Under the pieces are notes generated by a model. That model was not told where the DNA came from. It did no database searches and worked only from the letters and a program-made list of their open reading frames with translations. 64,000 nucleotides of DNA from Gymnogyps californianus (taxonomy: Eukaryota; Chordata; Aves; Accipitriformes; Cathartidae): the NCBI RefSeq assembly GCF_018139145.2, contig NC_059481.1, forward strand, positions 3,956,368 to 4,020,367, read 5' to 3'. The stretch's first letter is position 1. Each line of letters opens with the position of its first letter. This document shows, one piece after another, positions 910 to 25,700 of the stretch. The position numbers and the translations under genes were made by a program.

Positions 910-1059
910 GTGTATTGAGAATTACACAGGAGCCCGTTGTGAGGAAGTCTTGCTGCCCAGCATCAAGTCCCAAACAAAAGGTGACCTGTTTGCAGCTTTC
1001 TTGGCTTCACTTCTTCTTCTAGGAGTTCTTGTAATTGGAGCATTCTACTTCCTTTGCAG
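910..1059 (+). CDS. NRG4: NRG4 exon: EGF C-terminal half and transmembrane segment
   Basis: The 150-bp exon has acceptor TTTCCCAG at 902-909 and donor GTAAAAG at 1060. The first base completes an Arg codon, followed by CIENYTGARCEEV with the last two EGF cysteines. A juxtamembrane stretch (LLPSIKSQTKGDLF) is the likely shedding region. A helix of about 20 hydrophobic residues follows, ending FYFLCR. The close match to human NRG4 on both sides of the helix makes this exon the anchor for the gene call. Confidence 0.93.
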
Positions 1060-4000
1060 GTAAAAGTACTTCAGAGTGCTGAAGCTATTTAATCAAGTAG
1101 AAATTTCTTCTGGTAATCATGTACTAATTATTTGAATGTAAAAGTATGTAATGAATTATCCATAAGGTTTGTATGGTTATTCAGCATAATTAATGTGGAT
1201 GTCTCACTTGTTGCTTGTAATATTTTACTTCCTGGCTTGTAGTTTTCTCAGTGTCTTTTCTAAGCTATTACTCATAGTTGCTTTGTAAAAAATACATGTA
1301 GTACACCCATTTCTGAGAGATTTTACAGTCTACCTAGAGTGAGCGCTAACATTTTAAAATATTAGTCAACCCTTATGTTGTCAAAGATGGAGAAGTAGAA
1401 GCAAATTACCAAAGTGCTTAGGGATCAGAAACTGTTCCACTGCATTGAATTGGCAGCCAAACCAACTGGTGCCATTAGCTCCCAATTCCTTTACAGCTCC
1501 TGGTTTAAAAAGGAAAACTAAGGAAAGAATCAAATTCAAGAATAATCCCAGGCAGATGTTTATTAACTAACATCTAGAACAAATCGGAGGGCTAACTCAT
1601 GTATCCAGGATGATCCATGTTTGAGTAGCGTGAAAATGTCAGCGCCAGACAGCAAGTACTGCAGGTTTGGTTTTAGTAGCATTTAAGGCATATTAGGACT
1701 TCGAATGAAAACACGTAAGCAGTTACTGGGATTAAGTCAACTACTTGATGCTGTACGTGTATCAGTACCCTTACACCAAACCCAAACAAACTTACTGTCT
1801 TCACTTACTCTCTGCATTTATGTACGCAAGTCAACCTCCTATGTCCCCTCTTGTTTTTAGAGTACAGCACTTTTTGTAAGAGCTCATTTTGTCATACACT
1901 GTTAATATGTATTTATGCCTTTATGAGGGAACTTACTAGCCCCTGTAATTCTTAGCCATCACAGACTTGCAGCCTCTTCCTCTTTCTCCTATGCTGCATT
2001 TCTCCTTGGTTATGACAACCTAAGTTTCTTGCAATTCTGTTCTTTGCTCTCCCATAATCACATTGCCAAATCAACCTCTCTGATCAGTGCCTTTCAATGA
2101 GTGACCTTTGGAATAGCTGGTCTAGTTTTACCTCAGCTGCTGTCATGGAAACCCACTGAATGCCAATTTTTCCCATAGCTGAATATCTTTAGAAAAGACA
2201 GAGAGCATTTGACAAAACAGAGTTTGTATAAAAAAGAATTTGTTGTAGAGGATATCCCCCACCTTAGTCAGTTAAATTAATCCTGTCTTAGCAGTGGAAT
2301 GCTACAGCAGTTGTTCGCTAAAGAACATTTGCAGATTACTATAAAGTTATTAGAATAGAATACAGCTTTAACTGACTAAAGAAAAATTCATTCAAGTCTC
2401 ATAGAGGTACGGAGAGTATTTCTTTAGAAGTAAAGCTTGTCTCTGAGAACAGAAAAAAAGTCTTCAGAGAGTAATCTGTTAAAAGATCCCCTTCCTCTTG
2501 CATACCGTAAAATTAGGGGAAGGCTGGAGACACAATCTACTGAGTTTTATGGTCAAAGAGCCTTGCATTGCAAAGTACAGAAGTTTAGAATAACAGCACT
2601 GACAGGTCTGTGCAAGTCTTTTATTAGACAGTTGGAAGATGAACCTCAACTACTCTGTTTCTTTATAGGAAATCAATTTACTCAAGCTTTACCTAACTGG
2701 CAGAACAAGTAGTAGGGCATCTTTATTAGAAAAATAACAGGGGCAGCAACTCAACCTTAACATAGTTGCCCTTGAACCTATCTTACATACCAGACTAGCT
2801 TGGGAAATCTCATAAAATCATGATCAACTTCTTTAGTATAAAGAAAAGAACGTAACTGGCTAAAAATTGTCTTACCTTTACACTTCAGAGGCTGATGTAG
2901 CACAATCATCTTCTGCTAGAGAACTCATCTATAAAAGAAACACTTTACATCTAAAAGTCCTTATCTCTTGACTGAAGTGACCAACATATAAGAGGAGTCT
3001 CAAGTGGGTACTTTAATCTACTCCCCTCTTTTCAGCTGTATAAACAAGAATTATTGCTAGCAGCTGTCATTAATATTATTATTATGTTTTTTTCCCAAAT
3101 TTGATCTGCCACCTGTATCATAACATTGTGGAAGAGGTTGGAACCAGGGCTTGTAAGGGTTAGCTGAGAGTTTGCGTCATCCTTGACTTGTCCTCTTGAC
3201 AGGATATATTAAATTTAAAATGTTAAGAGAAATATTGTGCTATCAAGTTTCCACTATTACACTTTATTAACAAATATGTTTGATCCAGAATCAGAAGGCA
3301 GAGAGTTTTTCCCCCCCCCCAGTGTGTTAGTAGCATTTCTGTGGCTCTTTCAGCAGAGGATTCTAGTGCGGTTTTAGTATAAACAGTAATGCAATCTGGA
3401 GGGATGCAGAAGAGGAGATATTAATTGCAATTTAGGATACAGAAACTGAATCCCTAAATATTATACATCAAATCTTTTAGAATTTAGGAAATCAGTGGTC
3501 TGTTTTCTTGTCCCTGTCATCACTTGTTCCCCCCTTCCTTTCCAAGTTTTCTTTCTCTCAGGCTGCTTGGGGCAGATTTCAGGACCAGGCATGTGCAAGC
3601 GCATATAATGCTCCCTACAAACAAATCCATTCAGCATACAATGGCAGAGAGAAAGGATTTCATTGCTCTGCTTATAAAAACAAATCATAAGTAACAGTGG
3701 AAGTAACCCCTAAAAGAAAAGGGCTGCATATGAAAAGCTGTGGGTGAACAGTGGGAAATAATTCTCCTTTTATATTTAGCTGAGTCATCACATTTTTATC
3801 AGCCGAGGATTTATTTTTTCCAATCTGCCATCAGTCTTCTGTTAAGCTGATTTCATGCTGTATTTGATTATTTACTAGGATTCATCAAGATGGTATGGTT
3901 TGGGAAAGCAAACCTACAAGGAGAAGGAGGAGAGAGAATCAAAGATAATGAAGAAACACAGTATTTGAAATGGCTAGAGGGTGAGAATGATGGAAAGTAG

Positions 4001-6772
4001 AACAGAATAGAGGAGAGGAACTGAAGGTCTGAGTGGAAGGAGCAGCAGAGTATGGAGGGAGGGAAGAGGGCGAAGTGGTCAAGGACTGGTGATGAGAAAA
4101 GGCAGCTTAAAACTGGAAAAGATAAACAGTAGTCTAGGGTTAAACCTCCCACTTGCTGGAACCTGCTGAAGGAAAGGTTACTGTAGAGCTATCTTAGTGA
4201 GTCCCAGGTTGATAGAATATAATTATTTAGGTAGTAAAGTGAGTAGCTTTAATTTACTTTGTGAAAAAATGATGAGAATGTTGTTGCAAAGAAAAGACTA
4301 TGCTTTTATGTCTCCTCAAAGATGAGTCTTGTAAAACAATTTTATATCATGTTGTAAGAACTCATAAGAACAGTACAGTCCACACCCAAAATTAATGTGA
4401 AAACCAGTTCAGTACATTAGCTTCCTATATCAAGTTTTCTCCAGGAATGTGTTGTTTCATAGGCAATAAACGTCACTTCTCTGTCAAAGGGGGAATCCCA
4501 ATCTTTAAAGGGCATGCTCAGTTCTGTTTGCTACATTCCTGTAAAAGCTCAGCACATAAAACTATTGCTATTTCTAGCTATTGGGATTCACTAGAAGATA
4601 TGGCATCATGCCAACAATTGTACGTTAGCAAAGATAGTCAAATATTTACATTGTGAATGTAAAACTTATCTTTTTTTTTTTTTTTTTTTTTTAAATCAGA
4701 ACTGGTTTTATGAGAGTGACTTGCTATTTAACACAGAAAAGATGTCTTGGATTGGACTAGGCTTCTCTGCAGCTTTAGGCCCAGGAGCTGCATAACCTGT
4801 TAGCAGAGCAGAGCGTATGGAGGTAGAGCAAATCCAGATCTAGCCGCTCTCTGTCTTGAAACAAACACATACCCTGCCAACAAATGGTACTGATAAAGCC
4901 TATCGTTTTGACCTGGGGAAAACAGGAAAGTATGCAAAAATCCTTGCTATCACATTGTTACTGAGGTAACAAATGGCATATTTTGCTACAAGCAGTTCAC
5001 CTATCAGTACAGGTCCATCTGGCCTTCTTTCTCCAGAAACATATTGTACAAGGGTTACTGGAAGAAGAATAAGAAAGGCAGCTGATTAGTATAGATTCCA
5101 CATAAGTCAGCTTTTATTTAAAAACAATAGAGGCCTGAATGCCACATACACAGCTTAGAGGAATAGAGAAAACCCTAGGGAAAACTAAAATAAATCTGCA
5201 ATCCATTTCTATATTATAAGTCCATGTTGAAATGCCAAATTACCTGTAAGGTAAGTGTATAGTGATGAACAGGAACTCAGCCAGCCAAAACAACAGGGTC
5301 TAGGAATAAAGCCATTTAAGCTGTCCAAGACAACAGACTTTGTGGAGGAGTTATCACCACAGGACACAAACTGGACAGAAAGGAGAATAGCTCATGACTC
5401 TTCTCAAGAGAGCAGATGTCTAATTACTATTAAAAGAGACAGCAAGAGATCAGCTCTATTTAAAAGATCTGTTTCTCCTCAAGGAAGTGTGGAAAATATC
5501 ACATTATTGATATTTCACTTCCAAATGCTAAGAGAGTTAATGATAAATTAAATAATTTTGTGATATCCACTAATTGCTTACATAAAGATCTGAGAAATCA
5601 GACAAACAGGAACATTAACTTCAGGAGAGAAGCCATGTAGTTCTGAGTGCTGTTCCTGCCTCTGATCTCTGTTCTTCCTCAAATACGTGCCTCTCAAAAA
5701 TGTTGAGTATTAATTAGAAAGTAATTGCAGAAGATCTGTGTCACTTTTTTCAGGGGAAGCATCATTCAATTAATTTGTCTCTTCTCTGATAACTTTTTTC
5801 ACTGATAAATTTTTTCACTGTGTGTGTGTGTTTTTTTTTTTTCTCCCTGTTGTCTGTTTTTGTTTCTTATGGTCAGGAAAGCTTCCATTCCAAGGACGAG
5901 TTCTTCAGAGTGTGGTGCCAACCTGGTTGAAACTACAAGCAGCAATGGCTGCAACAGTGAGTACATTTAAAGTTAAATGATTGGAGTCCATAAGGAAGGC
6001 AGGGGAGGAAGTTTTCTTTAATGAAAAGCATGTGTTTTGTTTATTTTTCAGAAATAATAACAGAGTAAAGCATTAGAGTGGAAGAATGGTGGAAAAACAA
6101 CATGCAGAGCAACCCTAAGAATACAATAGTTGTAGAGGATGATGTGGTAAGCAAGATGAGAGAAGAAAGTAGACTGAAATAGGAGGCTTACTTATGTGTT
6201 GGAGAAGACTGCAACTAAGACATAAAGAGAAACAGTTGCACTTATTAGAGTTTCTATGTATTTTTAAAGGTGTATCAAATTATACAGAAATCACTATAAT
6301 CACTATAATTTATGTTTGAATTTTGTGAGATTTTTCAAGACAAGCTACTGTTTTCAATAATGCACAGGTAGAAGCATGAGATAATTTTGGGTTTTACTGC
6401 ATGGGAAATATGGAATAATCTTTTCACTGCACAGAGAATATGAGATAATCATAGGGTTTTTAACATCAGGTAATACTACGCATTTTTGATAGGATTGTCC
6501 TTTTTCACAGGATTGCCCCAGAGGAGTTGAGGACTGTCTTGATTCAATAGTTTCAAAATTTGTATCTGTGATACGTGCCCAGAATTTGGCTTGTTTCAGA
6601 TACACTTACCAGATGTAGGGGAAAAAAGTACCTTTCTCCAGCTAATACTAACTTTTTTTTTTTTTTTTTTTTTTTTTTAATAGTAAGACAACATGAGCAT
6701 GAGGTACCACGGCTAGTGTATTGGCCAGCTTCCTGGCACAAGATTTTAATTCAAATTAAAAGAAAACATTAA
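910..6772 (+). CDS. NRG4: NRG4, neuregulin-4 (3' part of gene; 5' exons before the window)
   Basis: Neuregulin-4 is a membrane-anchored EGF-family growth factor that is shed and activates ErbB4. Three plus-strand exons are proposed: 910-1059, 5877-5956 and 6684-6772. The first carries the end of the EGF fold (ENYTGARCEEV, as I remember it in human) and the transmembrane helix (LLLLGVLVIGAFYFLCR). The second carries a short tail including NLVETTSS, close to human NLVETSSTS. Junction phases agree: AG at 1059 joins G at 5877 to give Arg, and A at 5956 joins TA at 6684-6685. The upstream exons with the start codon and first EGF cysteines are not in the window. The identity is secure; the last exon is inferred, and without the last splice the protein would stop at 5970. 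The gene converges on FBXO22. Confidence 0.88.
1060..5876 (+). other. NRG4: NRG4 intron
   Basis: A 4.8-kb intron between the transmembrane and tail exons. It holds a C-run near 3310-3320, a 22-T run at 4671-4692 and a TG/T tract at 5820-5842. Short open frames at 2437-2712, 3868-4152 and 5255-5551 show no recognisable protein. A combined NF-E2/AP-1 and GATA-like motif pair is at 3779-3801. Confidence 0.75.
4671..4692 (+). repeat. Poly(T) run, 22 nt
   Basis: A mononucleotide run in the NRG4 intron. It may be the tail of an old minus-strand retroposed copy whose body is not recognisable. Confidence 0.85.
5877..5956 (+). CDS. NRG4: NRG4 exon: cytoplasmic tail
   Basis: The acceptor is preceded by a TG repeat and T-rich tract (about 5820-5870) and ends GGTCAG at 5876. 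The frame reads KASIPRTSSSECGANLVETTSSNGCN. The core NLVETTSS corresponds to human NLVETSSTS. A strong donor (GTGAGTA) starts at 5957. If that donor is not used, translation continues as S-E-Y-I and stops at TAA 5968-5970. Both endings are possible from sequence alone. Confidence 0.85.
6653..6678 (+). repeat. Poly(T) run, 26 nt
   Basis: An uninterrupted T run directly before the AATAG acceptor at 6679-6683. It may serve as the polypyrimidine tract of the putative NRG4 last exon. It could equally be the poly(A) tail of a minus-strand retroposed fragment. Confidence 0.9.
6684..6772 (+). CDS. NRG4: Possible NRG4 terminal coding exon
   Basis: A run of 26 T (6653-6678) followed by AATAG gives a strong-looking acceptor at 6682-6683. 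Joining A5956 to this exon in phase gives IRQHEHEVPRLVYW and a further 15 residues, then TAA at 6770-6772. The RQHEHE motif loosely resembles the His/Glu-rich end of human NRG4 (HHSHEQH), but the extra residues after it are not in human. This is an inference from splice signals and phase only. Confidence 0.5.
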
Positions 6773-8584
6773 GAAAAGAGATTGATAATGGTTAAAAGAA
6801 GTGTACTAGGCAGAGTATTTACCCTTTGTTTGGTATATGTCCCTAATATTAAGCAAGACACCTTCCTTGATGGTTTTATTTTTGTCTTGCTTTGTTCTGA
6901 AAATCTCAGTACTGAGGGAGACTTAAACCTTACCTTAAATTTTCCAGTTGATATTTCAGATACTAGAAGTCAGGAATTTTATTCATCAGGTCCATTCCTG
7001 ACACTAAATATTATCCAAGCAGGTGTCTTGGCTGAACAAGTGCTGCCCTCTCTAAAGATTTATTTGTTTTATTCACATAACCATTTGTTGATCACACCAG
7101 TATATTATATATCACTATCTGGTTCCTTACAGCATTCTCTTACTCAGAAAAAGAGAGGCCAAATGACATGGTCCATCTCTGTTTCTGCCTTGACAACACA
7201 AAGAGACTGTCTCCTTAGTCAGAGGCATAGAAAATATGAACCGAACAATTTTCTTTTCAACTCATTTCTAGCACTGGAGGCTGAAACCAGCAAAAATCAG
7301 ATATGTTACCATAATGGCACATTACCTAGCAGCTCATTATATTGGATTTATAAGCTTGTATTGAAGAGAAAATTAATTGAGAAAACTTCAGGAATTGAAA
7401 GGGGAGAAAACGCAGAACGCAGATTTCTTATCTCTGAAATAAACAATCTGGAGGTGTATAAAAATACAGGTGCAAAGAAAATGTTGAATAAGCTTCTATT
7501 CCTAGGGTGTCTACTACATGCTCTAGTGTCAGAAAAAACAGTGTGTATTTTGTATCAATGTAGACACAAGTACAGCAAGACAGAGAAGAAAAGACATGCT
7601 GTTACGGTGTATAAGGTAAGAAGTCAAAGAGAAAACCGTATAATAATAGCTACTAGAAAACAAAACAGAAAAATACATTACCTTCTGAGGACTCATGTCA
7701 GAGAAGTTAGAGTCCAAGTTAAAGCTCAGCATCTGAAGGGAGAATCTGAGGGCACCAAATCAAGTAGAGGCCTTGATCCAGAGATTAAGTTACATAAAGC
7801 ACTAAAAGATCACTTTCTCCCCAATTTAACCGAACTTATATGTTATTTTCTGGACTTCAAACCTTTAGCAGATAGTCTGAAGGAAGCTGATAATATTGCT
7901 TTAAAGGCTAGGAAAGATAAAAGTGATTTTTCATCACATAGGGACATGCCACTGTTAAATACAGAGTTTAGGAGATTTGTAGCAGTACTGACAGCTACAT
8001 TAGAATCAGTATCACATAAAGTACTTTGCACAGCCTCAGTGAAAATTAGTCAGAGACAACTACTGTTGGATAACCTCCATATGTTATTGATCATGAGACA
8101 TTCAGACTTAATAATGTTAAAGTTTGGTATACTATTTTCATTGATGAAGGAAAAGGCTTGTGATCATCTTAAGTGGAAATTCAGGAAGGAAGTATTAATA
8201 GAAGATGTAACAAATAAATGGACTCAAGTTGTACTCTATAAACTCTTAGAACCCTCTCAGCTTTCTAGACAGACATGGAATAGTTACTCACTGTTACCAA
8301 TCTTGCTTGCATCGTTCAGGAAACAATTTGTACAAAAAGTGAGGCTGAATAAACCAAAACCATGTTTAAATGCAAACAAGTTGATTTATGAAACAATGTT
8401 ATCTTTGAAGGAACTCCTATTAGCGATTCAGACTACTTCAAACCCATTGCATTTGAGAACATTTCAGCTTCTAAAATTAATTATTTCAATTCACAAGCTT
8501 TGTGAATATGATGTTCAGGTCAAAATGAGATCAGGCTACAAATTCATTTTAAGGTGGTCAAATGCCACAGAAAGTACAGGGTAG
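6773..8584 (+). CDS. Unrecognised open frame of about 600 codons in the putative NRG4 last exon
   Basis: The frame is open from the codon after TAA 6770-6772 to TAG 8582-8584, in the same frame as the proposed NRG4 tail. The first ATG is at 6788, giving a product of about 598 residues; a TTG lies at 6782. I recognise no family: no signal peptide, no clear membrane protein, no reverse transcriptase, integrase or transposase motif. Counting from the TTG, residues about 261-318 are strongly basic (CRHKYSKTEKKRHAV...) and about 330-580 look helical, rich in Leu, Lys and Ile (LLLDNLHMLLIMRH; MLSLKELLLAIQTT). In such AT-rich DNA, 600 codons without a stop is very unlikely by chance. AATAAA lies 20 bp past the stop. 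It could be an independent gene, the long exon of an undetected gene, or a young pseudogene. Confidence 0.6.
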   Translation, partial: EKRLIMVKRSVLGRVFTLCLVYVPNIKQDTFLDGFIFVLLCSENLSTEGDLNLTLNFPVDISDTRSQEFYSSGPFLTLNIIQAGVLAEQVLPSLKIYLFYSHNHLLITPVYYISLSGSLQHSLTQKKRGQMTWSISVSALTTQRDCLLSQRHRKYEPNNFLFNSFLALEAETSKNQICYHNGTLPSSSLYWIYKLVLKRKLIEKTSGIERGENAERRFLISEINNLEVYKNTGAKKMLNKLLFLGCLLHALVSEKTVCILYQCRHKYSKTEKKRHAVTVYKVRSQRENRIIIATRKQNRKIHYLLRTHVREVRVQVKAQHLKGESEGTKSSRGLDPEIKLHKALKDHFLPNLTELICYFLDFKPLADSLKEADNIALKARKDKSDFSSHRDMPLLNTEFRRFVAVLTATLESVSHKVLCTASVKISQRQLLLDNLHMLLIMRHSDLIMLKFGILFSLMKEKACDHLKWKFRKEVLIEDVTNKWTQVVLYKLLEPSQLSRQTWNSYSLLPILLASFRKQFVQKVRLNKPKPCLNANKLIYETMLSLKELLLAIQTTSNPLHLRTFQLLKLIISIHKLCEYDVQVKMRSGYKFILRWSNATESTG

Positions 8585-8603
8585 CCAACATTACATATAA
8601 TTT

Positions 8604-8609
8604 AATAAA
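8604..8609 (+). terminator. Poly(A) signal AATAAA after the unknown frame
   Basis: AATAAA lies 20 bp downstream of the TAG at 8582-8584. It would end a transcript carrying the long frame, probably the NRG4 terminal exon, at about 8625. Confidence 0.5.
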
Positions 8610-8668
8610 ATAGTACAACACTCTCTAGCAATGCTTCCTTGCAAAATTAAGCAAGTAGTCCTGTGAGC

Positions 8669-8674
8669 AATAAA
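8669..8674 (+). terminator. Second poly(A) signal AATAAA
   Basis: This is a further canonical hexamer (GAGCAATAAAGC), 65 bp after the first on the same strand. Two closely spaced signals right after the frame support a genuine plus-strand 3' end here. Confidence 0.45.
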
Positions 8675-8690
8675 GCTAAGGAAACACCGG

Positions 8691-11600
8691 TTCCAATGGA
8701 TGAGATCTTGTGGTTGGAGTCACTGGAGTCTAAAAAAGTGTTATGTGTATATGCAGGGATGAGTAATAAGGTCTCTCTTCTCCACTTGCCTCCTGTTTTC
8801 ATGAAACATAAGATCTCATGTCTTTAAAATTACCTCTCCACCAGTTGAAAGGTTACGGAGGGAAGAAAAGCGGAGAAGACTAATTTCCGAGGAACCTCCA
8901 CTAATATGATTACACAATAATTTATTATAGTGTTATGGCAAAAATTCTTTTATATCTGAGGATCACGTTTTCCTTCCAGAATCTTGTAGTAAAGGTCTCT
9001 TCATAATGTGTTGCAAAAACCTTTTGATCACTTGCAGAATGAAATGCCAGCCATTAGCAGGAAATCTCTTTATAGGCCTAAGAAAGAGGTTGCTTATATG
9101 TTACTCGGTATATAATTTATTTTCATTAGTAGCCCAAACAAACACTGGGGCAAAGTACAATGAAAGAAGGAGAAATGGCTGTTTAAAGAAAACAAGAGGA
9201 TTTCTCTGTGCTGCATAGTATTTTGATTTATATTGTTAAATATTAAGCGGGAGGACCAACGGGAAGTCCGTTTGGTAGCACTTCCCATTTTAAAGGAACC
9301 TTCAACGTTGTGCGACCCCTTCACAATTTACTGCACTAAAAAAATTATTTTCTTCCTGGCCCTGCATTTTTAAAGAGCAGTAGAGGAGCTCTGATGGTAT
9401 GACTCAGTTATTTGAAAATGGAAAGCAGAGAAGAAATGGGGGAGAGAACTTACCACAATAGAAATGGTGTCTGTGCCATTGCTTTCTGTTGTGAGTGTTC
9501 TGACTAGGAGCTACCAAACTGACCAGACTCCAGGCAGAAAAGGAAAGCAGTGAGTTTACCTGAAGGGTTAAAAATTCCCGTTATGTGTTCAGCAAATTCT
9601 GTGTAAGGACATACGTACCTAGAAGGGACTGCCCAGGGAAAGGGAGAGCTTTAGCCAAAGGTGGTTATGGATTTAACATGGGACACCCAACTCTTCTACA
9701 TTAAAAAACAAAACAAAACAAACCAACCCCCTCAATTATGTTCCTTTGGTATTTAGCATCCTTTCAAATTTAAAGGACATCAAGCTATTTCCAGTAAAAA
9801 CTGAAAAGACTGTGGATTAGTTTGGATAAGAGTTTTCACTTGTACTATGACCATATTCAAACCCAGGGATATTAATGAAGACATATCTGTAAAAGTTTGG
9901 GAAAAAAACTAGAACTAAATTGTGTTATGATTCTCTGGCAATGTTATTTAGATTACCAGGATGCATATGCTCACTGTACCTCTCTCAATTATAATGCCTT
10001 TTGTTGACATCTATATACTTAAATGAAGAGATAGAATATTCCTGTATCTCAGATCATACGGAATAATCAAAAGAATCCAGACATAAATTATTTGCTTTTT
10101 GTGCTTAAGATTAGTAAAAAAAGTGCTTCTTTCAAGAAAGTACTGCAGTATTTCCTGCACTTTGGGGGAAAACGAGCAAACAAAAAAACCCCAAACGTGC
10201 ATGCCTGAAGATGTTTAAAAAAAACCAAAACGTTTTTCATTATTGTATGTAACGTTATCTGCTTGTGCTTATCCAAAGTGTGTTCTTGCTTTTCTTGTGA
10301 TTGTAACCTGTTCAACATAATCTGTATGTAATGCGAGAGATCAGTTTCTTGATAGCAAAGTACCAAATACAAATTTTGTGAAATACTGATAGGCAGGTTG
10401 CCACTCAGTTCCATGTTTGGGACTGATACTCCACAAAATCTTTCACCAGGAATTATTTCTGTCGCTAGCTAAGGGCGTGTAAGCAGAACCTGCAGCTGTA
10501 GAACCTGAAATAACAAGAAGATATTGTTGTTTTCATCCCCAAATTAAAACTACAACCAATTTCTAACACTTCTAAATGCACCTCTATGTCAGTTTGTGTA
10601 ACATTTGAATATTCTTTTTCAGTGTACATTAAAAGAGACTGTTTTCAAATTATCCTCTCCATGTAAGTAATGATATTTTGACTACAACTTTTGTACAGAG
10701 AAATGATGGGCTACGTAAAAACGTAGCTGAGCATCCACTGGTGGCATTTTTTAACAAGGCTTTGTAATTTGAATCTATGTTGTATGTTCTCCATCACAGA
10801 ATTTGCTGCTGTTTCAAGCTATTCAGTCATTTTCACCAGTTCTGGAGATTCTAGGAGAGTTCCTGGTTTGAGGGGATTAGTGTTTGCTCTCACTGTTACC
10901 ATACTGACAACTCAGCTAAGATGAGCTTATTTTAAAAAAGCTGTTTCTAACTCTTATAGCTGTGAAAATTTATCTTGAAAAGGTGACATGACTGCCACTG
11001 ATTCAGTGATGTGAATCGCTCTGAAACATTTGTTTTGAGAAGTTTGTGCTACCTGCTAATCTCAGTGAGGATCTAGCTGTGAAATGTAATGATGGCAATT
11101 TATAAAATGTTTTTTAAAAGCATTTAGAAGCACAAATCCCATTGATTTGGGAATAAAATTTTTGCTCCTAAATTATCAAAGCACTTTGAAAAAAATTCCA
11201 GTTAGCTATTTCTCTGCTAATAATTCTAACGTAAGTATCCAGGTAATATAATTTCCAAATAATCCAAACCTATCTTACGCCTTTCCTTTGAAAAAAAAAG
11301 TTTCGAGTTTTTCATTGTAGCTATACGTTTTCTGTTTAGAAAAATACCCTACGTTGTTATGAAGTGCTGGTAGGCATAAAATAATCACTACAAGGGTCCT
11401 ACAATGTTTGAATTCGTATTTGTTTGACCTGAACCTGTGGTACAGGACCAAGGCACACCACCACCACCACCACCAGAAGTGAGCTCAGTTTACCTTGCTG
11501 CACACCTTTGAGCCTGTAGTTCAGGAGACACATTCCTAGACAGAACACCCTCACGGCTAACCTGGAGCCCCTCCGAAACAGCCTCTTGTGGAGCCTGTGT

Positions 11601-15469: not shown

Positions 15470-15899
15470 TTACGCTTGGTTTGCTTTAGTTGAACCAAGA
15501 TGAATAAGAGTCATAACGGTAGTGTAACCATGAAGAAGGTCATCCTTTATGTCATTACATTCTCTTAATACGAAATTCCCAGTAACTATTCGATCACATC
15601 CTATTTCCCCATGTCCAAAAAAGCCAAAGAGGGGAACATTTGGAAAAAACTTCCTAAATGCATCTGCTTCCATATTCCTTTTGGTTTTATAATGCCGGTA
15701 TCCTCTGCCAACACAGGCAAACATGAAGCCAATGGTGTTACGCTCAGGGATGTTTGCTGCTTTGAGACGCTGCATGGCGGCTTCTGCTGTCCTCTCATCA
15801 GCTACATCCTGGTCTAGCAAAACAGTGGCACTCTGGATCTGGGGACCGCTGAAAGCCAGCCCAACCACGCCGCAGGCATCGCCAGGCTGGGCATTGTTA
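15470..15899 (-). CDS. FBXO22: FBXO22 exon 7 (last coding exon)
   Basis: Acceptor GCCTTTCAG at 15907-15900. It encodes [39 protein letters not shown] and the FIST-C core [20 protein letters not shown]. It ends [10 protein letters not shown] with TAA at 15470-15472. The human protein ends HLGSSK, so this one has a few extra residues. Confidence 0.95.
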
Positions 15900-18800
15900 C
15901 TGAAAGGCAACAGGCACCGAGTTAGAGAACGTTCCAGGGAGACCACTTCCGACCTGAATAAACTCCTGCTGTGGCAGAAGTAGGTTGCCAAGCAGACCAA
16001 CATCCTAGTGATTCTGAAAGCCACCCATACTTAAAAAGGAAACCAAAGCCTTCAAATTTTAGCAACCTTTTTTTTTTTTTTTAGCAACCTTTCACAAGGA
16101 AAAACTTTCACATCCATTACCAGAGATTAAGCGTAAGCCTACCTTTCAAATACATGCCAAATTCAGCAGTTTGTGTATGTCACAGCTCTGTAATTCCAAC
16201 TAAACTATTAGTTAAACTTGAGACAAGATACTCAGCATTTACATATCAAACCAGGGCAGCAGTCCGTAATGGCTCCAGATTCATGCTGCTTTAAGTCTCC
16301 TTGGCTGGCCAGGACACATTGGTTTTAGTAGTTACCTACTTACGCTTTATTAGCAGTAATTTAATGTACGGTCAGCTCTCTTATCTGGAGTAATGGTGCA
16401 GCTGGCGTACATCAGATGCAAGAAAAATGTTGGTATTACTACGGAGTCCAGACCTATGCTGGCATCAGAGGAGCCTGTGGCAATGTCCGCGCTGCACACC
16501 CCAGCACAGGACGCTCCAGTGAGGATGCACCAGCACTCGCGAGTCAGACAGCACAAAGGGCTCTCCCTGTGCAGCAGAGCAGCTGGAGCAACTGGAGCCC
16601 GTATCTGCCCTGCAGGGATCCTGGCGGAGGGAAGGGGTTTAGGCTAGATGAGATCTCACTCCTATGCGTGCCATGTCCTTCAGCAGCGGCAGCATATTAG
16701 GTGTGCTCCTGAGGCACAGTCCTGTTTGCGTGTTCAGCTACTGCTCTGTAATGTGAACCAAACCGAGGCTGATATAGAAACAAAACGTTCACATAAATGG
16801 TCTCTGTCACAACGAGCGATAATTTATCTGCAAGCCAGAGAGTACACACAGACTGCAATAAACACACATAGGGTATCTGAAGCGGGAAATCTCCTTTGCG
16901 GTGGGTTTCTCCTAGCTGGGTTTCCAGAATCGAATTTGTGACAGAGTCATACAAAGCTTTCAGCTTTTCTGGCTAGATCACAGTGTAGCAGTTGGACTTT
17001 ATTCTCTTAAAAAAAAATTATCATTTTACTACTGTTAATGGACATTTCTAATATGACATAACTAAAAGGCTATGGTTTCTGCAGTGTTTCTCCCATTTTA
17101 AATCTTCTTCACAATTTACCTTGAAAAAGATACCTACTTCTCAGAGGTCAGTGATGTAAAGCTCTCCACTTGTCCCCCAGCCAGGATGATACTCTTCTCA
17201 TTCAAAGGATTGACTATTTGATGAAGAAATCGAGTAGCTCCAGACTTCCAGGAGTTGTAGCCAAACAGAAGAACCACCCGGAGATCTGGGTTATTCTTCA
17301 GACCTACAAAGAAAAATACAAATACCAATCCTCTTATTTTTAAATCCTGACCCCTGAAGTCCAACCATCCTAGCCTCTCCTCAAATAATACATCACACCT
17401 TTAGTAATGCCTTTCCATTGCTGCACCTGGGAAAACAAGACACAAGTTGCCCAGGCATTCAGGAGCTGGGCTGCGTTCCCCACAAAAGTGAGAATTTCTG
17501 AGAAGAACCTAGCAAGGAAAAGAAGACTGCATCTGCTTCCTCCAGCTTTCAACTTCTTTAGCAGAGCATTTGAGTTGTACCACAGCCTCTGAAGGCACAG
17601 CTCTTCAGTTTTACTTGGCAGCCTTAATCGTCCTTTTACAGTAAGAACTGAGCGTATAGGCTATTCAACAAGAACCACAACGCAGTAAATAGCTTTACCT
17701 GAAAATTAAATACATTACATGCATCAGCCCGTTGCTTATCCGAAAGCAGAAACTGCCAGGTTCCTAGAAGACTCAAGAAACCCTCATTATATTACTCTGC
17801 ACAGATGATCTACCCCGCTGAGGACACAACGTGAGGAATGTAAACTGTATTTATTGAAATATGCTGTCTTCTGTTCTACCTTTCCTTGCTACAACACCTG
17901 ACTTAGAATCTAAATGCAAAGGTATTTTGGAGAAGAAGAGAAGCAGCTCCTCCCCCCTCCTTTCTAAACTGTAGTGATGGGAATCATTCCCAATGGCACA
18001 AACTCATTTATCATTATTTTTAACCAATTAGAGGTTGCTCAAAACCTAACGGCTCCCTCTGAACGGCTCCGCTTGCAACCTAACTGAGGTAATCTGAGAT
18101 CAATACTCAGGATAACTTAATCTTGATGCTCCGGAGAATGGGAAGAACAAAGATGCATAATTACCAGCTGCAGCCCTAGAGAGCCACAGCGTGCTCTATG
18201 AATGCAGTTAGCACAGAAGCTGTTGCTTCCACGCTGGCGCCTAAAAGAGCAATACAACACTTCACAAAAGCCCAAATAAAGGGGAGAACAAGGACATACC
18301 TGCTTCAGCAAATTTACTTTCATCAAAGACCCTGTTCTTCAAGTCTTTTGAAAAATGGAAGGTATGAATTTTCACCCCATCGATTTTGGGAAACAACAGA
18401 GCAAACCCAGCTTCGCCCTCTTCAATTTCTTGAGGCTGATTGCTGCTTGAACCCATAGGGGTAACTACAAAGATACAAACCCAGACATCTTGCGTTCAAT
18501 GATTCTAATATTTTCGTCTACACTGTAACACAGATTAAAAGAGGCAGAACAGCTTAGACGATGTAAACATGATAGTTCATTTCCATAACAACATATCTAA
18601 TTGACAACTGGTATGATTTTTTGTTGATCTTTTGGTGAGATGAAGTGTGTAGGAGTCCTGCTGGCTATAGATCATGCTGAAGTCGCTTTGGACAAGGAGA
18701 CATGGATATATTTGGACATTTTCCCCCAGCCACACCAAATATAAATCAGTTGGAAAACAAGCACTGTGCAATACTGTGCAATGTCTCAAGCCTTCCTGCC

Positions 18801-20718
18801 AGCTTCTGCAGGTACGCAAACATACTCAGATTTTTAAGGACCACAAGTGAAACAGGGAAAGGTGTTATACGAGTGTGTGATGACAGTATAAAGCAAACTG
18901 ACGCAAATATTGGGAGTGTATTATTGAATTACACTGGTGACAACAATCAAATACCCCACTTATGCTGTGGGAAGAGAATTTAAGGCGAGAAACTAGGAAA
19001 AAAAACTTTCTAATGATAAAAAAAGTGAAACACTAGAGAAAGACTGCCAAGGGAGGCTGTGAATTTTCCATAGTTATTGCATATGCCCCCTGCTAGACCA
19101 TAACAAACAGGTACATACCAAGCATATCCTATACCATTAGCCACAATGTCACTCTGAAAAATATAGATAAATCCAAGAAATAGTCAATAACTACATTAAG
19201 GTGCCTGGAAAGACTGCAATAAGCTGCCTGCTCAATTATATCAACTCTTTTAATTATAACTGCATCACACAAAGTAAGAATTTAAGCTCCACGTGACTTA
19301 GCAGCGACATTGTGAACTCCTTAAAATTTAAGCTAGCGCTGAACAAGGTGGGGGAATATGGTAATCACTGTGAGAACTCTCCCATCAGTCTGCAGGACTA
19401 TGCTTTCAAAAACATATGAAACTGTGATAAACAGGAACCGGAACAGCTGTGCGACACGCTGGACACCTTCAAGCTGATCTCTCACAAAATCACACGTTTT
19501 CCTCCTACCTACAATCCCCGGGGTGACCAGTCCAAGAACCTGACATCGCTTTGGCAACAATTTTTCGAGCGCAATTGCTGTTTCTTTACTGTTTCTTTTC
19601 CTAGCTGTTAAAAAAAGAAGGGAAAAAAAAAAGCAGAGAGAAGTAAAAATTAGTTGTTCTGAACGGTACTGGGACAAACCCTGCAGTCAGTCCCGTCCTG
19701 TTTAACCAATGCTGCCCATCAGTGGCTGCCCTGTTAACAACATGGCAAATCTGTACGCATCAGTATGAGCACGGGACTACTGGCATGCAAACAGAATCAA
19801 CATCCTCCAGAGAACAGGAAAGGAACTCGTCTACGTAAAATAACATACATCTACGAGCTGCGTTTCATACCACAAACGTAAAACTATGCGGTGGCGTTTT
19901 TTGCAAAAGATTTACTTTCCCTTGAAATTCAAATTCCGAGAATTCCCTTTCAGCTGACTTTCCTCCACTACACGCTGTACTTACGTCCCACGCACTTCTT
20001 GAAGCGGGAGCGCGTTAGTTCAAGGTTTACCTTTCTTTTGCTCGTGACACTCCTCGTGCCCGCTGAATGTTTCTGCGTCAGCTATATAGAGCACGGTTTG
20101 CGGCAGCACGTGCACCTTCTGCAAAAAGACGGGAGAAGGACCGTGCTGCCGAGCCCCGTTCCACACGGCGGAGCGAGCCTGAAGCGGAGCGGGAGGAGAA
20201 ACCGCGGAAAACCGTCCCCCGCTCCGCTGGCGCGAGCCCCCCCCCCCCGAAGCGCGAAGGCCCCGACCCCCCGCCCGTCTCGCGAGGGACCGTCCCTCAC
20301 GCCAGCGCCGCCGGGGCGCGAGGCCCCGCGCGCACCCACCTCCAGCTCGCGGGCCAGCGCGCGCACCAGCGCGTGGCTCTCGGCGGGCCCCGGCTCCAGC
20401 GCCGACACCCAGGCGACGCGCTGCCGCGCCCGCAGGATCCGCCGGGCGCACTCCCTCCACAGCCGGCACACGCTGCAACACACGGCGGACACACCGCGTC
20501 GGCGGGGGCGCCCCGGGGCCGCCCCGCCCCGGCCCCCGGCCCCGCCGCCGCCGCTACCTCGGAACCGGAGCCAACCGCCACGGCGGCGCCCACCCCCGCG
20601 GCCCCGCCCCTTACCAGGCGGCGCGCAGCAGCGCCTTGGTGGGCAGGAAGCCGAGGACACGCTCCACCACCTCGGCCAGGTTGCCGAGGACGAAGCCGCC
20701 CTTGGCTGCGGCCTCCAT
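15470..20718 (-). CDS. FBXO22: FBXO22, F-box only protein 22 (complete)
   Basis: FBXO22 is the substrate receptor of an SCF ubiquitin ligase; the family is known for targets such as KDM4A/B and BACH1. Seven minus-strand coding exons join in phase: 20615-20718, 20340-20472, 20031-20118, 19509-19604, 18300-18464, 17138-17303 and 15470-15899. They total 1182 bp, or 393 residues against about 403 in human. The N-terminal F-box ([20 protein letters not shown], then VCRLWREC) spans about residues 11-50. The rest is the FIST-type sensory domain, including [30 protein letters not shown] and the conserved [20 protein letters not shown]. The start ATG has a near-ideal context (GCCATGG). The N-terminus is about 12 residues shorter than human. 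The 3' end faces NRG4; the 5' end abuts UBE2Q2. Confidence 0.96.
15900..17137 (-). other. FBXO22: FBXO22 intron 6
   Basis: A 1.24-kb intron. It contains a T-run flanked by direct repeats (16057-16092) and a GC-richer block at about 16390-16720 in which short open frames appear on both strands. No recognisable protein or RNA gene. Confidence 0.8.
17138..17303 (-). CDS. FBXO22: FBXO22 exon 6
   Basis: Acceptor CTTTGTAG; encodes [20 protein letters not shown], then [18 protein letters not shown] and TSLTSE. Ends in phase 2 at donor GTAGGT (17137). The human equivalent reads DNPELRVVLVFGYN and ILAGGQVDNLSSLTSE. Confidence 0.93.
17304..19508 (-). other. FBXO22: FBXO22 introns 5 and 4 (with exon 5 inside)
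   Basis: Intron sequence 17304-18299 and 18465-19508. I see no repeats of known family and no open frame with a recognisable product. Confidence 0.75.
18300..18464 (-). CDS. FBXO22: FBXO22 exon 5
   Basis: Acceptor CTTTGTAG; encodes [20 protein letters not shown], then [18 protein letters not shown] and a variable stretch to AEAG. Ends in phase 1 at donor GTATGT (18299). It is slightly shorter than the human counterpart in the last third. Confidence 0.93.
19509..19604 (-). CDS. FBXO22: FBXO22 exon 4
   Basis: Acceptor TTTAACAG; encodes [18 protein letters not shown] and [12 protein letters not shown], against human [23 protein letters not shown]. Ends in phase 1 at donor GTAGGA (19508). Confidence 0.93.
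20031..20118 (-). CDS. FBXO22: FBXO22 exon 3
   Basis: Acceptor TTTTTGCAG, then [18 protein letters not shown], matching human VRILPHTVLYMADSETF. It ends in phase 1 at donor GTAAAC (20030). This is the start of the sensory domain. Confidence 0.93.
20340..20472 (-). CDS. FBXO22: FBXO22 exon 2
   Basis: The acceptor is GTTGCAG and the first base completes a Cys codon. It encodes the second part of the F-box ([19 protein letters not shown]) and a linker ending ARELE, in phase 0. Donor GTGGGT is at 20339. The intron before it is only 142 bp and lies wholly inside the CpG island. Confidence 0.93.
20615..20718 (-). CDS. FBXO22: FBXO22 exon 1
   Basis: Starts at ATG (complement of 20716-20718) in the context GCCATGGAGG. 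It encodes [20 protein letters not shown] and the rest of the first F-box helices, to residue 34 plus two bases. Donor GTAAGG is at 20614-20609. The frame stays open about 80 codons upstream, but I find no ATG there. Confidence 0.93.
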
Positions 20719-20813
20719 GGCGCCGCCGCCGCCGCGCCGCCCCGCGCGGCCTCCCCCTTCCCCGCCGCGGCAACGGCGCTCTGCGTCACCGCGCGCCGAC
20801 GCTACCGGGACGG

Positions 20814-20822
20814 ACTTCCGGT
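20814..20822 (-). promoter_or_regulatory. ETS/GABP-like site
   Basis: ACTTCCGGT on the plus strand equals ACCGGAAGT on the gene strand, about 100 bp upstream of the FBXO22 ATG. A second related site lies at 20854-20863. Confidence 0.5.
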
Positions 20823-20972
20823 CACGCGGGTGCGGGGACACCAAGAGCAGCCACACTTCCGCCGCCTGGCGGCCGGGAGGACGCGCCCCGCTCTCGCGTT
20901 CCCCTCCCGCCTCACCCCCCCCCCGCCCCGCCGCGCCCCCAGCACGGACACAGCGCACTTCTTAAAATGGTT

Positions 20973-20978
20973 TTTATT
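20973..20978 (-). terminator. UBE2Q2: UBE2Q2 distal poly(A) signal
   Basis: AATAAA on the minus strand, followed by an A-rich then CpG-rich flank. It lies 255 bp upstream of the FBXO22 start codon, so the two genes almost touch if it is used. Confidence 0.55.
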
Positions 20979-21927
20979 CATAAACTTGATGCAAGTTTAC
21001 AAATTACTGTACATTGCCAAGTAACTCTGCAATGAGAAATGGGACCCAAACCGAAGCATGCGCCGAAGGTGCGGGGTGGGCCTGCGCCGCGCCGCGGGCG
21101 GGGGCGGGCGGGCGGGCGGCGGCGCGGCGCTCGCAGGCTGCGGCCGCGGAGAGCCGCCTTCACCCGCGCCGCGCCCGGCTGCCAGGGCTGGTACAAAGAC
21201 TGGTACAACCACGCAAGCAGAAAGGCTGGGAAGTCACCCACCGTACATCTGAAACAATACGTATTGGAAGTAGTGCCAAACCTCTCCAATCGTTTCTTTC
21301 GAGCTAAAAACTGGATCTAGAAGCAAACGCGCAAGGACCCGTGGGTGCCTGATAGAGAAAAGAGCACAAATTTGATAGTCAACTAAAAAAACGTAACAAA
21401 AACATGCTTCTGCGCTTCTAAAAAGTGCTTAGTCCACGGTACGCACCCTTAGCTCAGCCCCAGAGGGGTGCAAAGGCCTAATGACTAGTACTACAACCAA
21501 AATAGAATCCATGTAGGTAAGGCAATAAAATATAGTGTAATTACACAGACCCAGATTCATTTCCTAATAAAGAAAGAACAGTTCCCATTAGTCTTTCAAC
21601 AACAAAACCACCGTCAATGACCATGGCAACATTTCTTAAACCTCTGAATCAGATGACATGTTTTTGTACTTTATTGTAGCTTTTATATAAAAATTGTTCA
21701 TTCACGGACTTTCATCTCTATTTGTGCCAATCACTTTATAAGTTCATTAGTTTACAAATGATTGCAACAACCCGTTAATAAAATGGAACACCTAAAAAGG
21801 TTTTTAGTATTTTAAATAACTTCAAGCTTCATACTGCGGCTCTTCTTGTTAAGGAGGTTGAGCCAACAAGTAGCAGGAACAGCCCAGCAAGTTCTGATGC
21901 CCCAGTGGAAGTGACTAGTTACAAGGT

Positions 21928-22713: not shown

Positions 22714-25700
22714 CTATGGAGAACAGAGAAATGCGTCAGGTACCGACACCGCTACGTCAAGACGATCTTACCATCTTACTCTCAATTTGTGGGAGATGGA
22801 AGCCTCATCTGGCTCCTTCCTTCCCTCTTAAAGCAGGCCAGCTCAGCGAGACCCCGTGCCCTAAACGCTAGTGGTCTGCAGTGGGAGATAAAGCGTGTGG
22901 CATATTCCAGAATCAGACCCAGTATTGGGGCGTGAAAATGAAATACTTGCAAGTTTGGGGGTTTTTGTGGCAGCAGCTATCCTGAGTTGGACAAGCTGGA
23001 CATCAACAGAGGAAGCTGTTGAAGGAGGAACATTGCTGTAACAAAACCAAATGGAATAGATGTAAAACCCCCAACTCTTCAAGCCACTTAATGCACAGAC
23101 GTACACTGGGATACTTATATGTAAATCCCCATCTTGCGTACTGAAGAGTTAGGCACGCGCAAGCATTTGAACGGTTTATCCTACTTCTGCAAATCTTGCT
23201 GTAGGAATAGGCTCAGAAATGTCAGTTGAATAACCTGTCTCCTGATAGGATTTGGCATGTTTAGCGGTTGAATCATACCTAATCGAGTGTGCATAGTTTT
23301 TTCTAGCCACCTCCAGATCTCCAATCTTAATTCTCCCAGCCACTACTGTAAAAATTCCCCTAACTTTTGGTACAGTGAATACAGGGCCTATTTATGTTGT
23401 CCCGGAGAACAGGTAGCAGCTGTAAGTTAAAGACACCTTTCGCAGCAGCGATAAATGCTGTGAATGCTTTGGGTACAGCTCCTGACGCAGCAGTAATCAC
23501 TGTAGTCAAGGCTAGCACATAGCTAGAAGTAAACAGACAGCCATGCTGGCTTTTGTAGCAAACTAAAAAAGCAAAAGACTCAGTTAATGGCAAGATCAAA
23601 ATATCATAAAATTGGAAAGCATTTTGAAGTCGTCATCTTTGATCTTCCTCCCAATAGTAGAGAAGGCATTATGTTCAATTTTAGAGGGAGGGAAACTGAG
23701 GTGCTCACTACAGTCAGGCTGAAATACGCTCTCATGTTCACAGCAACATGAATTCCCAGAGGACACTGTTTCCGACCTGGATCAAGGAACATCACGGAAG
23801 TGGTAACTGGGACTAACTCCTCCATCCTTTACATAAGCCACTTAAGCCTTTTAAAGCCTCAGGTCATTTGTTGTCTTCTCATACTGGCAACAATGAATTC
23901 AATTATACCTGAAGCACCTGAATACTTGGTTTATGCAGCTGAGAGACCATTAACTGGCTTTAAATAGGGTAACAAAATAAATAAATGTGTCTCCCATTTC
24001 TATGGCACAGTTTTCCAGCCAGCACATTTCACTTGGACTTTTTGTATTTTTTAGTCTCCGGTCTTTCTTTCCACTTTCTCTCTTCCTTAATGAGTACTAC
24101 TGCTAAGGTCTTGCCACATTGAAACAAAGCCTTTCAGGGAAAGAGGCAAACTTCCAGCAGGTACTTCACAAACAAATAAGACACTTTAAAAGCTACAGTA
24201 ACAATAAAGTTCCTAGATCAACTGGCCGAAATGAAATTGAACTACCTTTCAAAAGACAGTAGGAACACATGGAACATTCATGTAAGCTGGGAAAGTTGCA
24301 ATGATTGTTAGTCAAGTTACTTCAAGCACTATTGTCTTCCTAGTGCAAGATGAGAAAAAGGAAACACCATTCATGGTCTTCCCAAGCCAACATAAGACAC
24401 TCTGGCACTTCAAGTTTTACTGCGGCCAAATACCAATTCCCAGGTTGCTGTGCAGACAAGAGCAAAGTCTCAAGAATATACGTACCATTTTTCTCATGTA
24501 TTTGTACTAGTGACTTATAGGACTGCTGTGCTCTTGCTAGATTATATTGATTCTGAAAGGAGAAAAAAACGAACATAAAAAACCTGCATCTAGACATGCG
24601 AGACATAAAAACAGTTTTACGAAGAAACGCAACAGTGGCCTTACAAATAAACACCATGCACAATGTTACAACATTCCTGGCTTTAAAGTACAAGATTTTC
24701 AAGACAAATACCCTTATTTTCTCATTTCTCCTCTGTCGTAACGACAGTAATTTGTATACCCCTGCTGCTGGAAAGGCGCCTCTATCAGAAGGTTCAGAAC
24801 CTGAGGTAAGTCAGAAGTGTGTGCAACCGGAACGGCAGGCTTCAGGCAATCCCCACCGTAACTCGGTCTTGCTCAGCTGACCAGTTACCGGGTCAGACAG
24901 AATTGTGATCATAAACTTTTACATCTTACCTAGTTCACTATCCTTGAATCAGTACTTAAAAACTGGCATCCAAGTGACAATTTCATTGACTTAAATATTT
25001 GAACATCCTTTGAAAACAGCATTTGGTACTTCAAAGTCTTTTAAGTTATGGTCCATTACCAGCAAGCACACTTGAACTGAATTATGATTTCGATTAATGC
25101 TGAATGGCTAGCTCAGAGGTATTTGCATGGTATTATTTTTCACCCTCTCATGAAACTTTGCAGGTGTTTAGTCCAGCAAAAGGAGGAGAACTTCTTAACA
25201 TCAGTGTATGCAATCCTGGCAGTCAGGCCGTCATCTACAGCCCTTCTCAGAGCCAGAATTTCCAAATCCTCCCAATTCTGAATCCTCCTTCCCTCCCCTC
25301 CTTGCCAATACGGGGATAGTACAAGTCTAACTCCTTACACACCCTGCCCATCCCAAGGTTTTATCCTCCTCATACGTTCATCATTTCGTAACAAACTTAT
25401 AGTTAACTGCCAATAAAATACTCGTAAATGCACCAGACATCAAGATAAATCAAAAATGCAAATATATTTGCAATGACAATTCTGTCATTAAGCATCTTCT
25501 ATGCAAGTCAGCAAAGAAATGGAAGCCTAACAGTAATTTGTGTAATTGATATACACAGCGCATTTACCTTATTGGCTCCAAACTGTACTCTGGCTTTTCC
25601 TTTGACTAAAGTGGCATTGATCTGCATGATGACTGATTCTATTGAATAGGCACTGCTCCAGCCCTGGAGGAGGAAGGAAATATTTCTATATAACATGTAC

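What the first reader, a model, noticed from the sequence alone, without database searches (positions are those of the whole stretch)
6773..8584. 600-codon open frame of unknown family directly behind NRG4
The frame is open for about 604 codons in AT-rich DNA; with roughly 6-7% stop triplets expected, chance is negligible. It carries a basic block and a Leu/Lys-rich helical half and ends just before two AATAAA signals. It matches no family I can name and contains no transposon enzyme motif. It may be an undescribed or fast-evolving gene, or a recently inactivated exon.
Basis: partly seen in the sequence, partly recalled or inferred. Interest (0 to 1): 0.8.

Follow-up and report, generated by a model that had tools for sequence, protein, structure and literature searches.

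The report
Bird-only 600-codon frame behind NRG4
Just behind the growth-factor gene NRG4, birds carry a 600-codon reading frame of no known family that several lineages have kept open although its amino acids drift almost as freely as in unconstrained DNA, so it looks like an uncharacterised, loosely constrained bird gene.

Summary
The frame is real: 603 sense codons at 6773-8584 (+), ATG at 6788, far beyond chance, one place in this 1.24-Gb genome, no Pfam, NCBIfam or PDB family. It lies in the 3' part of the NRG4 locus, two AATAAA signals follow, FBXO22 is convergent. Of 43 profile hits 31 carry an organism name, all birds; nine clusters are near full length (582-602 aa), including a duck and two owls. 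On the tree of these ten frames the missense changes imply about 64 stop-creating changes under neutrality, none present: the frame has been selected to stay open. Yet residues behave almost as if free: replacements follow the mutational spectrum, with no confident fold. Five other relatives show true frameshifts, four of them in a clade with a passerine. Best reading: an undescribed, bird-restricted, weakly constrained protein gene in the NRG4 3' region, lost in some lineages. Transcription, translation and dN/dS could not be tested: no DNA of other birds was at hand. Rivals: product-indifferent translation, a dead relic, or an NRG4 tail.

The parts
6773..8584 (+). open frame, 603 sense codons plus TAG
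6788..8584 (+). presumed coding sequence, ATG with A at -3 and G at +4; P0001-P0009 and the kiwi protein P0013 start at the aligned Met
8604..8609 (+). AATAAA, first poly(A) signal after the stop
8669..8674 (+). AATAAA, second poly(A) signal
6646..6683 (+). candidate 3' splice site: TACTAAC, 26 T, AATAG; exon would start at 6684; rank 20 of 1482 plus-strand AG sites scored in the first 20 kb (NRG4 acceptor at 5877 ranks 13)
911..1060 (+). NRG4 exon (end of EGF part and membrane span); identity by recall of the family, no database match
5877..5976 (+). NRG4 exon coding the cytoplasmic tail; reads to a stop about 5968-5976 if not spliced
15473..16030 (-). FBXO22 last coding exon (FIST_C domain; gene name by recall), convergent to NRG4

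Best explanation
It is a real protein-coding frame of a bird-restricted orphan gene that occupies the 3' part of the NRG4 transcription unit, probably as one long terminal exon. Shown: the frame, its relatives in birds, and that stops have been kept out of it in ten diverged frames. Inferred: it is transcribed with or from the NRG4 locus, translated from the ATG at 6788, and gives a basic, Leu-rich, largely unstructured protein whose function tolerates almost any residue change but not truncation (perhaps mainly a short C-terminal segment matters); it is dispensable enough to have been lost in a passerine-like clade and in at least one relative of ducks.
For: Relatives of 582-602 aa in nine clusters, 72-86% identical over 98-99% of the query (only the 7999 candidates sharing most words were scored there and). 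43 proteins with the profile, all 31 with an organism name being birds. On the tree of the ten full-length frames about 822 missense changes imply 64 nonsense changes under neutrality; none present. None of the nine full-length relatives changes frame collinearly against the window, whereas five of the other 42 proteins do, so frameshifts are visible where they exist. Database models carry this CDS under the name pro-neuregulin-4 isoform X1 in Athene, Oxyura and Neopelma. Residues 541-600 reach pLDDT 59-72 in the second AlphaFold run; segment 531-603 has the shortest tree of seven (1.31 against 1.64-2.25) and is the one where a bias to similar residues is not disfavoured; in segment 431-530 Q.bird fits better than the mutation-only matrix by 7.1 log units.
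Against: Over the whole frame replacements show no preference for similar residues: Grantham 75.7 against 74.5 +- 2.9 expected (5 of 13 relatives pooled); a mutation-only matrix beats Q.bird by 38, JTT by 205, LG by 499 log units; best bias value on the grid 0, as in two neutral simulations, where three data sets simulated under protein models give 1; same in 25 named birds plus the window over the middle; within-class replacements 0.333 against 0.325 +- 0.019. No clustering of slow sites. No confident fold (mean pLDDT 26.9 and 36.6). Residue order looks random. No transcript, ribosome or peptide data. The full-length relatives were found as open frames, so the sample leans to intact ones, and compensated pairs of frameshifts would not show.
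Confidence: 0.58

Rival explanations
1. The frame is kept open because it is translated as a second or downstream cistron of NRG4 mRNA, and translation itself (or the length translated), not the product, is what matters.
For: Stops excluded while residues are nearly free is what this predicts. A published class of translated downstream ORFs in vertebrate 3' UTRs acts independently of the encoded peptide (PMC7459409: abstract, sections 7 and 10 seen).
Against: In that paper the effect depends on the number, not the length, of downstream ORFs, and they have under 100 codons, so it gives no reason to keep 600 codons open. Whether the frame is in NRG4 mRNA at all is not shown.
Confidence: 0.14
2. 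A non-functional relic: a frame that was open in the bird ancestor and is now drifting, seen intact only where it has survived by luck or because a protein search favours long frames.
For: Neutral-looking residue replacement, no confident fold, frameshifts in P0043, P0044, P0046, P0047 and P0049, short or shortened frames in further relatives.
Against: 64 nonsense changes expected on the tree of the ten intact frames, plus about 48-116 frameshifts under assumed indel ratios of 0.05-0.12 and an assumed 80% frameshifting share; ln P of no break about -112 to -180. For window to Oxyura alone 16.7 nonsense expected. I judge that choosing intact frames among thousands of genomes cannot repair such odds.
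Confidence: 0.18
3. It is an alternative long cytoplasmic tail or in-frame post-stop extension of NRG4 itself.
For: Splicing from the possible donor after 5957 to the candidate acceptor at 6684 would put NRG4 in the same frame, ending at TAA 6770-6772, the codon just before the open frame, 15 bases ahead of the ATG (read; sites scored).
Against: Same frame by chance has odds of one in three; the donor scores below my cut-off; an unspliced NRG4 tail exon reaches a stop of its own; the Athene, Oxyura and kiwi proteins start at the frame's Met, not in NRG4; no Pfam match at all.
Confidence: 0.1

Closest known systems
Taxonomically restricted (orphan) protein genes
   Same: long open frame kept in a clade, no relatives found outside it, no known fold, fast evolution, loss in some lineages
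   Different: replacement is close to what mutation alone gives over most of the 600 codons, while the frame is kept
Translated downstream ORFs in vertebrate 3' UTRs (PMC7459409)
   Same: position behind a main coding sequence; product sequence seems to matter little
   Different: 598 codons instead of under 100; a long frame kept over bird evolution; translation not shown here
NRG4 isoforms (database name pro-neuregulin-4 isoform X1)
   Same: same locus; databases file this CDS under NRG4 in three birds
   Different: no EGF domain found; the CDS does not include the NRG4 exons seen in the window; the name looks like a locus label (inference)

Membership tests
Orphan protein gene | no relatives outside one clade | tested here: met
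   31 of 43 profile hits carry organism names, all birds; 12 of those 43 and the 8 new hits are unnamed; one scan each of viral and of prokaryote contigs found none. Reptile genomes could not be searched.
Orphan protein gene | frame maintained by selection | tested here: met
   64 nonsense expected, 0 present in ten frames; no collinear frame change in the nine full-length relatives; rests on protein sequences and an intact-biased sample
Orphan protein gene | amino-acid level constraint | tested here: inconclusive
   absent over the whole frame; hints in 431-530 and 531-603, in Gly, Phe and Glu, and in rate variation above neutral simulation
Orphan protein gene | transcribed and translated | not testable with these tools
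   only database gene models
Translated downstream ORF | under 100 codons, in the 3' UTR of the same mRNA | tested here: not met
   598 codons; same-mRNA not testable
NRG4 isoform | EGF domain or shared NRG4 coding exons | tested here: not met
   no Pfam match; Athene, Oxyura and kiwi proteins start at the frame's own Met
Chance or dead frame | stops and frameshifts accumulate at the rate of other changes | tested here: not met
   not met in the window and nine relatives; met in part in other lineages: five proteins with frame changes
Transposon-derived gene | relatives elsewhere in the genome or an enzyme domain | tested here: not met
   one place by protein and by DNA in the own genome, best candidates only; no Pfam domain; an ancient, eroded element family is not excluded

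The most novel reading that the evidence does not exclude
A 600-codon frame that natural selection has kept free of stops across birds although nearly every residue is free to change: a gene whose translation or length, not its sequence, is the selected trait, sitting as a second cistron behind NRG4.
Probability: 0.14. Interest if true: 0.85.

Novelty: new member of a known kind. Interest (0 to 1): 0.56.

Why it matters
A large coding frame that databases file as an NRG4 isoform in some birds would be a gene missing from bird gene sets. If the contrast holds at the DNA level (no stops, hardly any residue constraint), it is a natural test of whether long frames can be selected for something other than their protein sequence, and of how weakly constrained genes die, since intact and shifted frames coexist among living birds.

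Tried and rejected

Other origins: transposon or duplicated gene (one place); structural RNA in 5000-9800 (two Rfam matches far below their gathering scores); viral or prokaryote source. Repeats in 5800-9500: none that matter. Coding on the minus strand: its three frames hold 29-60 stops over the same stretch.

Composition: C is depleted at third positions (z -3.4 to -4.8 against stop-free random models), but a stretch of neighbouring DNA, 6069-6650, has the same low C (0.134 against 0.130), so I do not count it as proof of coding.

dN/dS: not computed. The paper looked at for lineage rates gives no numbers in the passages seen (PMC4844689).

Literature: no paper on this frame was seen in the listings for NRG4, neuregulin 4, avian and open reading frame; pro-neuregulin-4 and bird genomes; de novo gene with birds; LOC106496530 and NRG4 isoform names; orphan genes with avian; NRG4 with chicken and UTR (in one search 10 of 403 were listed, 8 of 11, 17 of 18). 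The library lacks most subscription journals. Only PMC7459409 (abstract, sections 7 and 10) and PMC4844689 (passages) were opened; all others were seen as listings.

Choices that shape counts: one search used 25 of the 26 partial named-bird proteins (P0028 dropped for a deviant start) plus the window; one search's pooled test used 5 of 13 relatives; the tree and model tests used the 14 rows of A1; the neutral matrix used a kappa and the base frequencies of the frame; bias values were tried on a coarse grid; amino-acid property tables and splice-site weights were typed from general knowledge. Four neutral simulations gave larger margins over Q.bird (181-217) than the real data (38) and flatter rates (alpha 18.8 or more against 3.7), so the real data are not exactly neutral. 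A fast stretch near residues 380-460 is mildly significant (p 0.02-0.045).

Full report
What is there. The window (part of a 1.24-Gb genome in 542 contigs) holds a frame open for 603 sense codons at 6773-8584 on the plus strand, with its first ATG at 6788 and TAG at the end. It is the longest frame closed at both ends in the window. The other five frames over the same bases hold 29-60 stops; 60 simulated 64-kb sequences never gave more than 242 open codons. Protein and DNA each have one place in the genome (only the best candidates are scored there).

Where it is. NRG4 lies upstream on the same strand: an exon with the end of the EGF part and the membrane span at 911-1060 and a tail exon at 5877 (NRG4 recognised by recall, a PDB search with the 50-residue exon found nothing). 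FBXO22 lies downstream on the other strand; its last exon at 15473-16030 matches FIST_C (gene name by recall). AATAAA stands 20 and 85 bases behind the frame's stop. A good-looking 3' splice site with a TACTAAC box and 26 T precedes an exon start at 6684 (rank 20 of 1482 plus-strand AG sites in the first 20 kb; the NRG4 acceptor at 5877 ranks 13). How NRG4 ends in this bird cannot be settled from the sequence: unspliced, its tail exon runs into a stop; spliced from 5957 to 6684 it would run in the same frame as the long frame and stop at 6770-6772, 15 bases ahead of the ATG (read).

Relatives. A search of 5.8 billion proteins found 13 relatives, a profile search 43; in both only the 7999 best candidates were scored. 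All 31 hits with an organism name are birds; 12 have none. Nine clusters (P0001-P0009) are near full length, 582-602 aa, 72-86% identical; they include Bubo, Athene and the duck Oxyura. The kiwi (391 aa) and Neopelma (345 aa) proteins are shorter, and 26 named birds have partial proteins of 210-241 aa from the middle. Databases call the protein pro-neuregulin-4 isoform X1 in Athene, Oxyura and Neopelma, and uncharacterised in kiwi. A search with a 130-residue piece of the C-terminal half, made to find short frames, gave nine hits, eight of them new (68-154 aa). Compared with the window's DNA, five of all 51 proteins continue collinearly in another frame: P0043 (twice), P0044, P0046, P0047, P0049. 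None of P0001-P0009 does (P0004 and P0007 have one weak off-frame match each that is not collinear). In a tree, six of the eight new short hits group with Neopelma, a passerine (support 90), one joins next to them (84), and the eighth and P0043 group with the duck (95). Species of these hits are unknown; clade labels are my inference. Some short proteins may be short only because of contig ends or the gene caller's choice of start.

Is the frame selected? Yes, on this evidence. From the window's codons, nonsense changes should be 0.078 per missense change. The tree of the ten full-length frames has about 822 missense changes, so 64 stops would be expected; there are none. Between window and Oxyura alone 16.7 are expected. 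Gaps among the ten frames fall into 20 distinct intervals; in intact frames these are whole codons by construction, so they count only as a sign that indels did occur. With assumed indel ratios of 0.05-0.12 per substitution and 80% of indels shifting the frame, ln P of no break is -112 to -180. The sample favours open frames because they were found as proteins, but I judge that this cannot balance odds of that size. The shifted frames in other lineages show that breaks are seen when they exist.

Are the residues selected? Hardly. Replacements between the window and its five closest relatives have a mean Grantham distance of 75.7; random one-step missense changes give 74.5 +- 2.9. An exchange matrix made only from mutation fits better than Q.bird, JTT or LG (by 38, 205, 499 log units). 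When a bias against dissimilar residues is added, its best grid value is 0, as in two neutral simulations; three data sets simulated under Q.bird or JTT give 1. The same holds in 25 named birds plus the window over the middle region, where the margin over Q.bird is 78. By segment, six of seven prefer a bias of 0 or below; 531-603 allows a mild bias, and in 431-530 Q.bird beats the mutation-only matrix by 7.1. Within-class replacements are 0.333 of all, 0.325 +- 0.019 expected. Gly, Phe and Glu are somewhat better kept than neutral simulation predicts (z +2.5, +2.6, +2.1) and Thr less (-2.2), of 20 residues tested. Rate variation is small (alpha 3.6-3.7, 11% invariant sites) without clustering of slow sites. 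Against full neutrality: four simulated neutral data sets give alpha of 18.8 or more and a larger margin over Q.bird (181-217).

What the product looks like. Basic (net +22 to +45 in ten full-length frames), Leu-rich, no periodicity or clustering of hydrophobic residues, no confident fold with 14 or 44 rows (mean pLDDT 26.9, 36.6), except that residues 541-600 reach 59-72 in the second run. Fold searches gave nothing of weight.

Reading. The frame looks like a bird-restricted orphan gene whose product tolerates almost any change but whose truncation has been selected against, and which has been lost in some lineages. Which property is selected is inferred, not shown: a loosely built protein, perhaps with a functional C-terminal part, is the likeliest; translation for its own sake is the boldest alternative. 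The known effect of translated downstream ORFs does not depend on length (PMC7459409), so it does not by itself explain 600 kept codons.

Limits. No DNA of other birds was within reach, so dN/dS, synonymous change, splice sites and the NRG4 stop could not be compared. No expression data.

Noticed in passing
window 6052-6146: Candidate cassette exon of NRG4 (acceptor rank 29 of 1482, donor rank 7 among plus-strand GT sites scored in the first 20 kb); joined to the NRG4 tail exon it would bring a stop near 6066 (read) ahead of a further junction, the pattern of a decay-prone exon.
   Followed up: partly
window 7616: A near-perfect 5' splice site (AAG|GTAAGA) lies inside the long frame, rank 3 among plus-strand GT sites scored in the first 20 kb; use unknown.
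   Followed up: no
window 19882-21024: Plus-strand frame of 380 codons overlapping the GC-rich region of the FBXO22 start on the other strand, with several other long frames there; probably a by-product of GC-rich sequence.
   Followed up: no
window 24343-24810 (-): Minus-strand frame of 156 codons with no Pfam match.
   Followed up: partly
P0028 (Egretta), residues 1-12: This partial protein begins with residues that resemble a reading of about 6054-6089 in another frame, as if an upstream exon at 6052 were joined to the long frame (read by eye).
   Followed up: partly
tree, distances: Root-to-tip protein distances (midpoint root) differ 4.5-fold among named birds (penguin 0.068, hornbill and woodpecker 0.305), which may mean that constraint has eased in fast lineages.
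   Followed up: no
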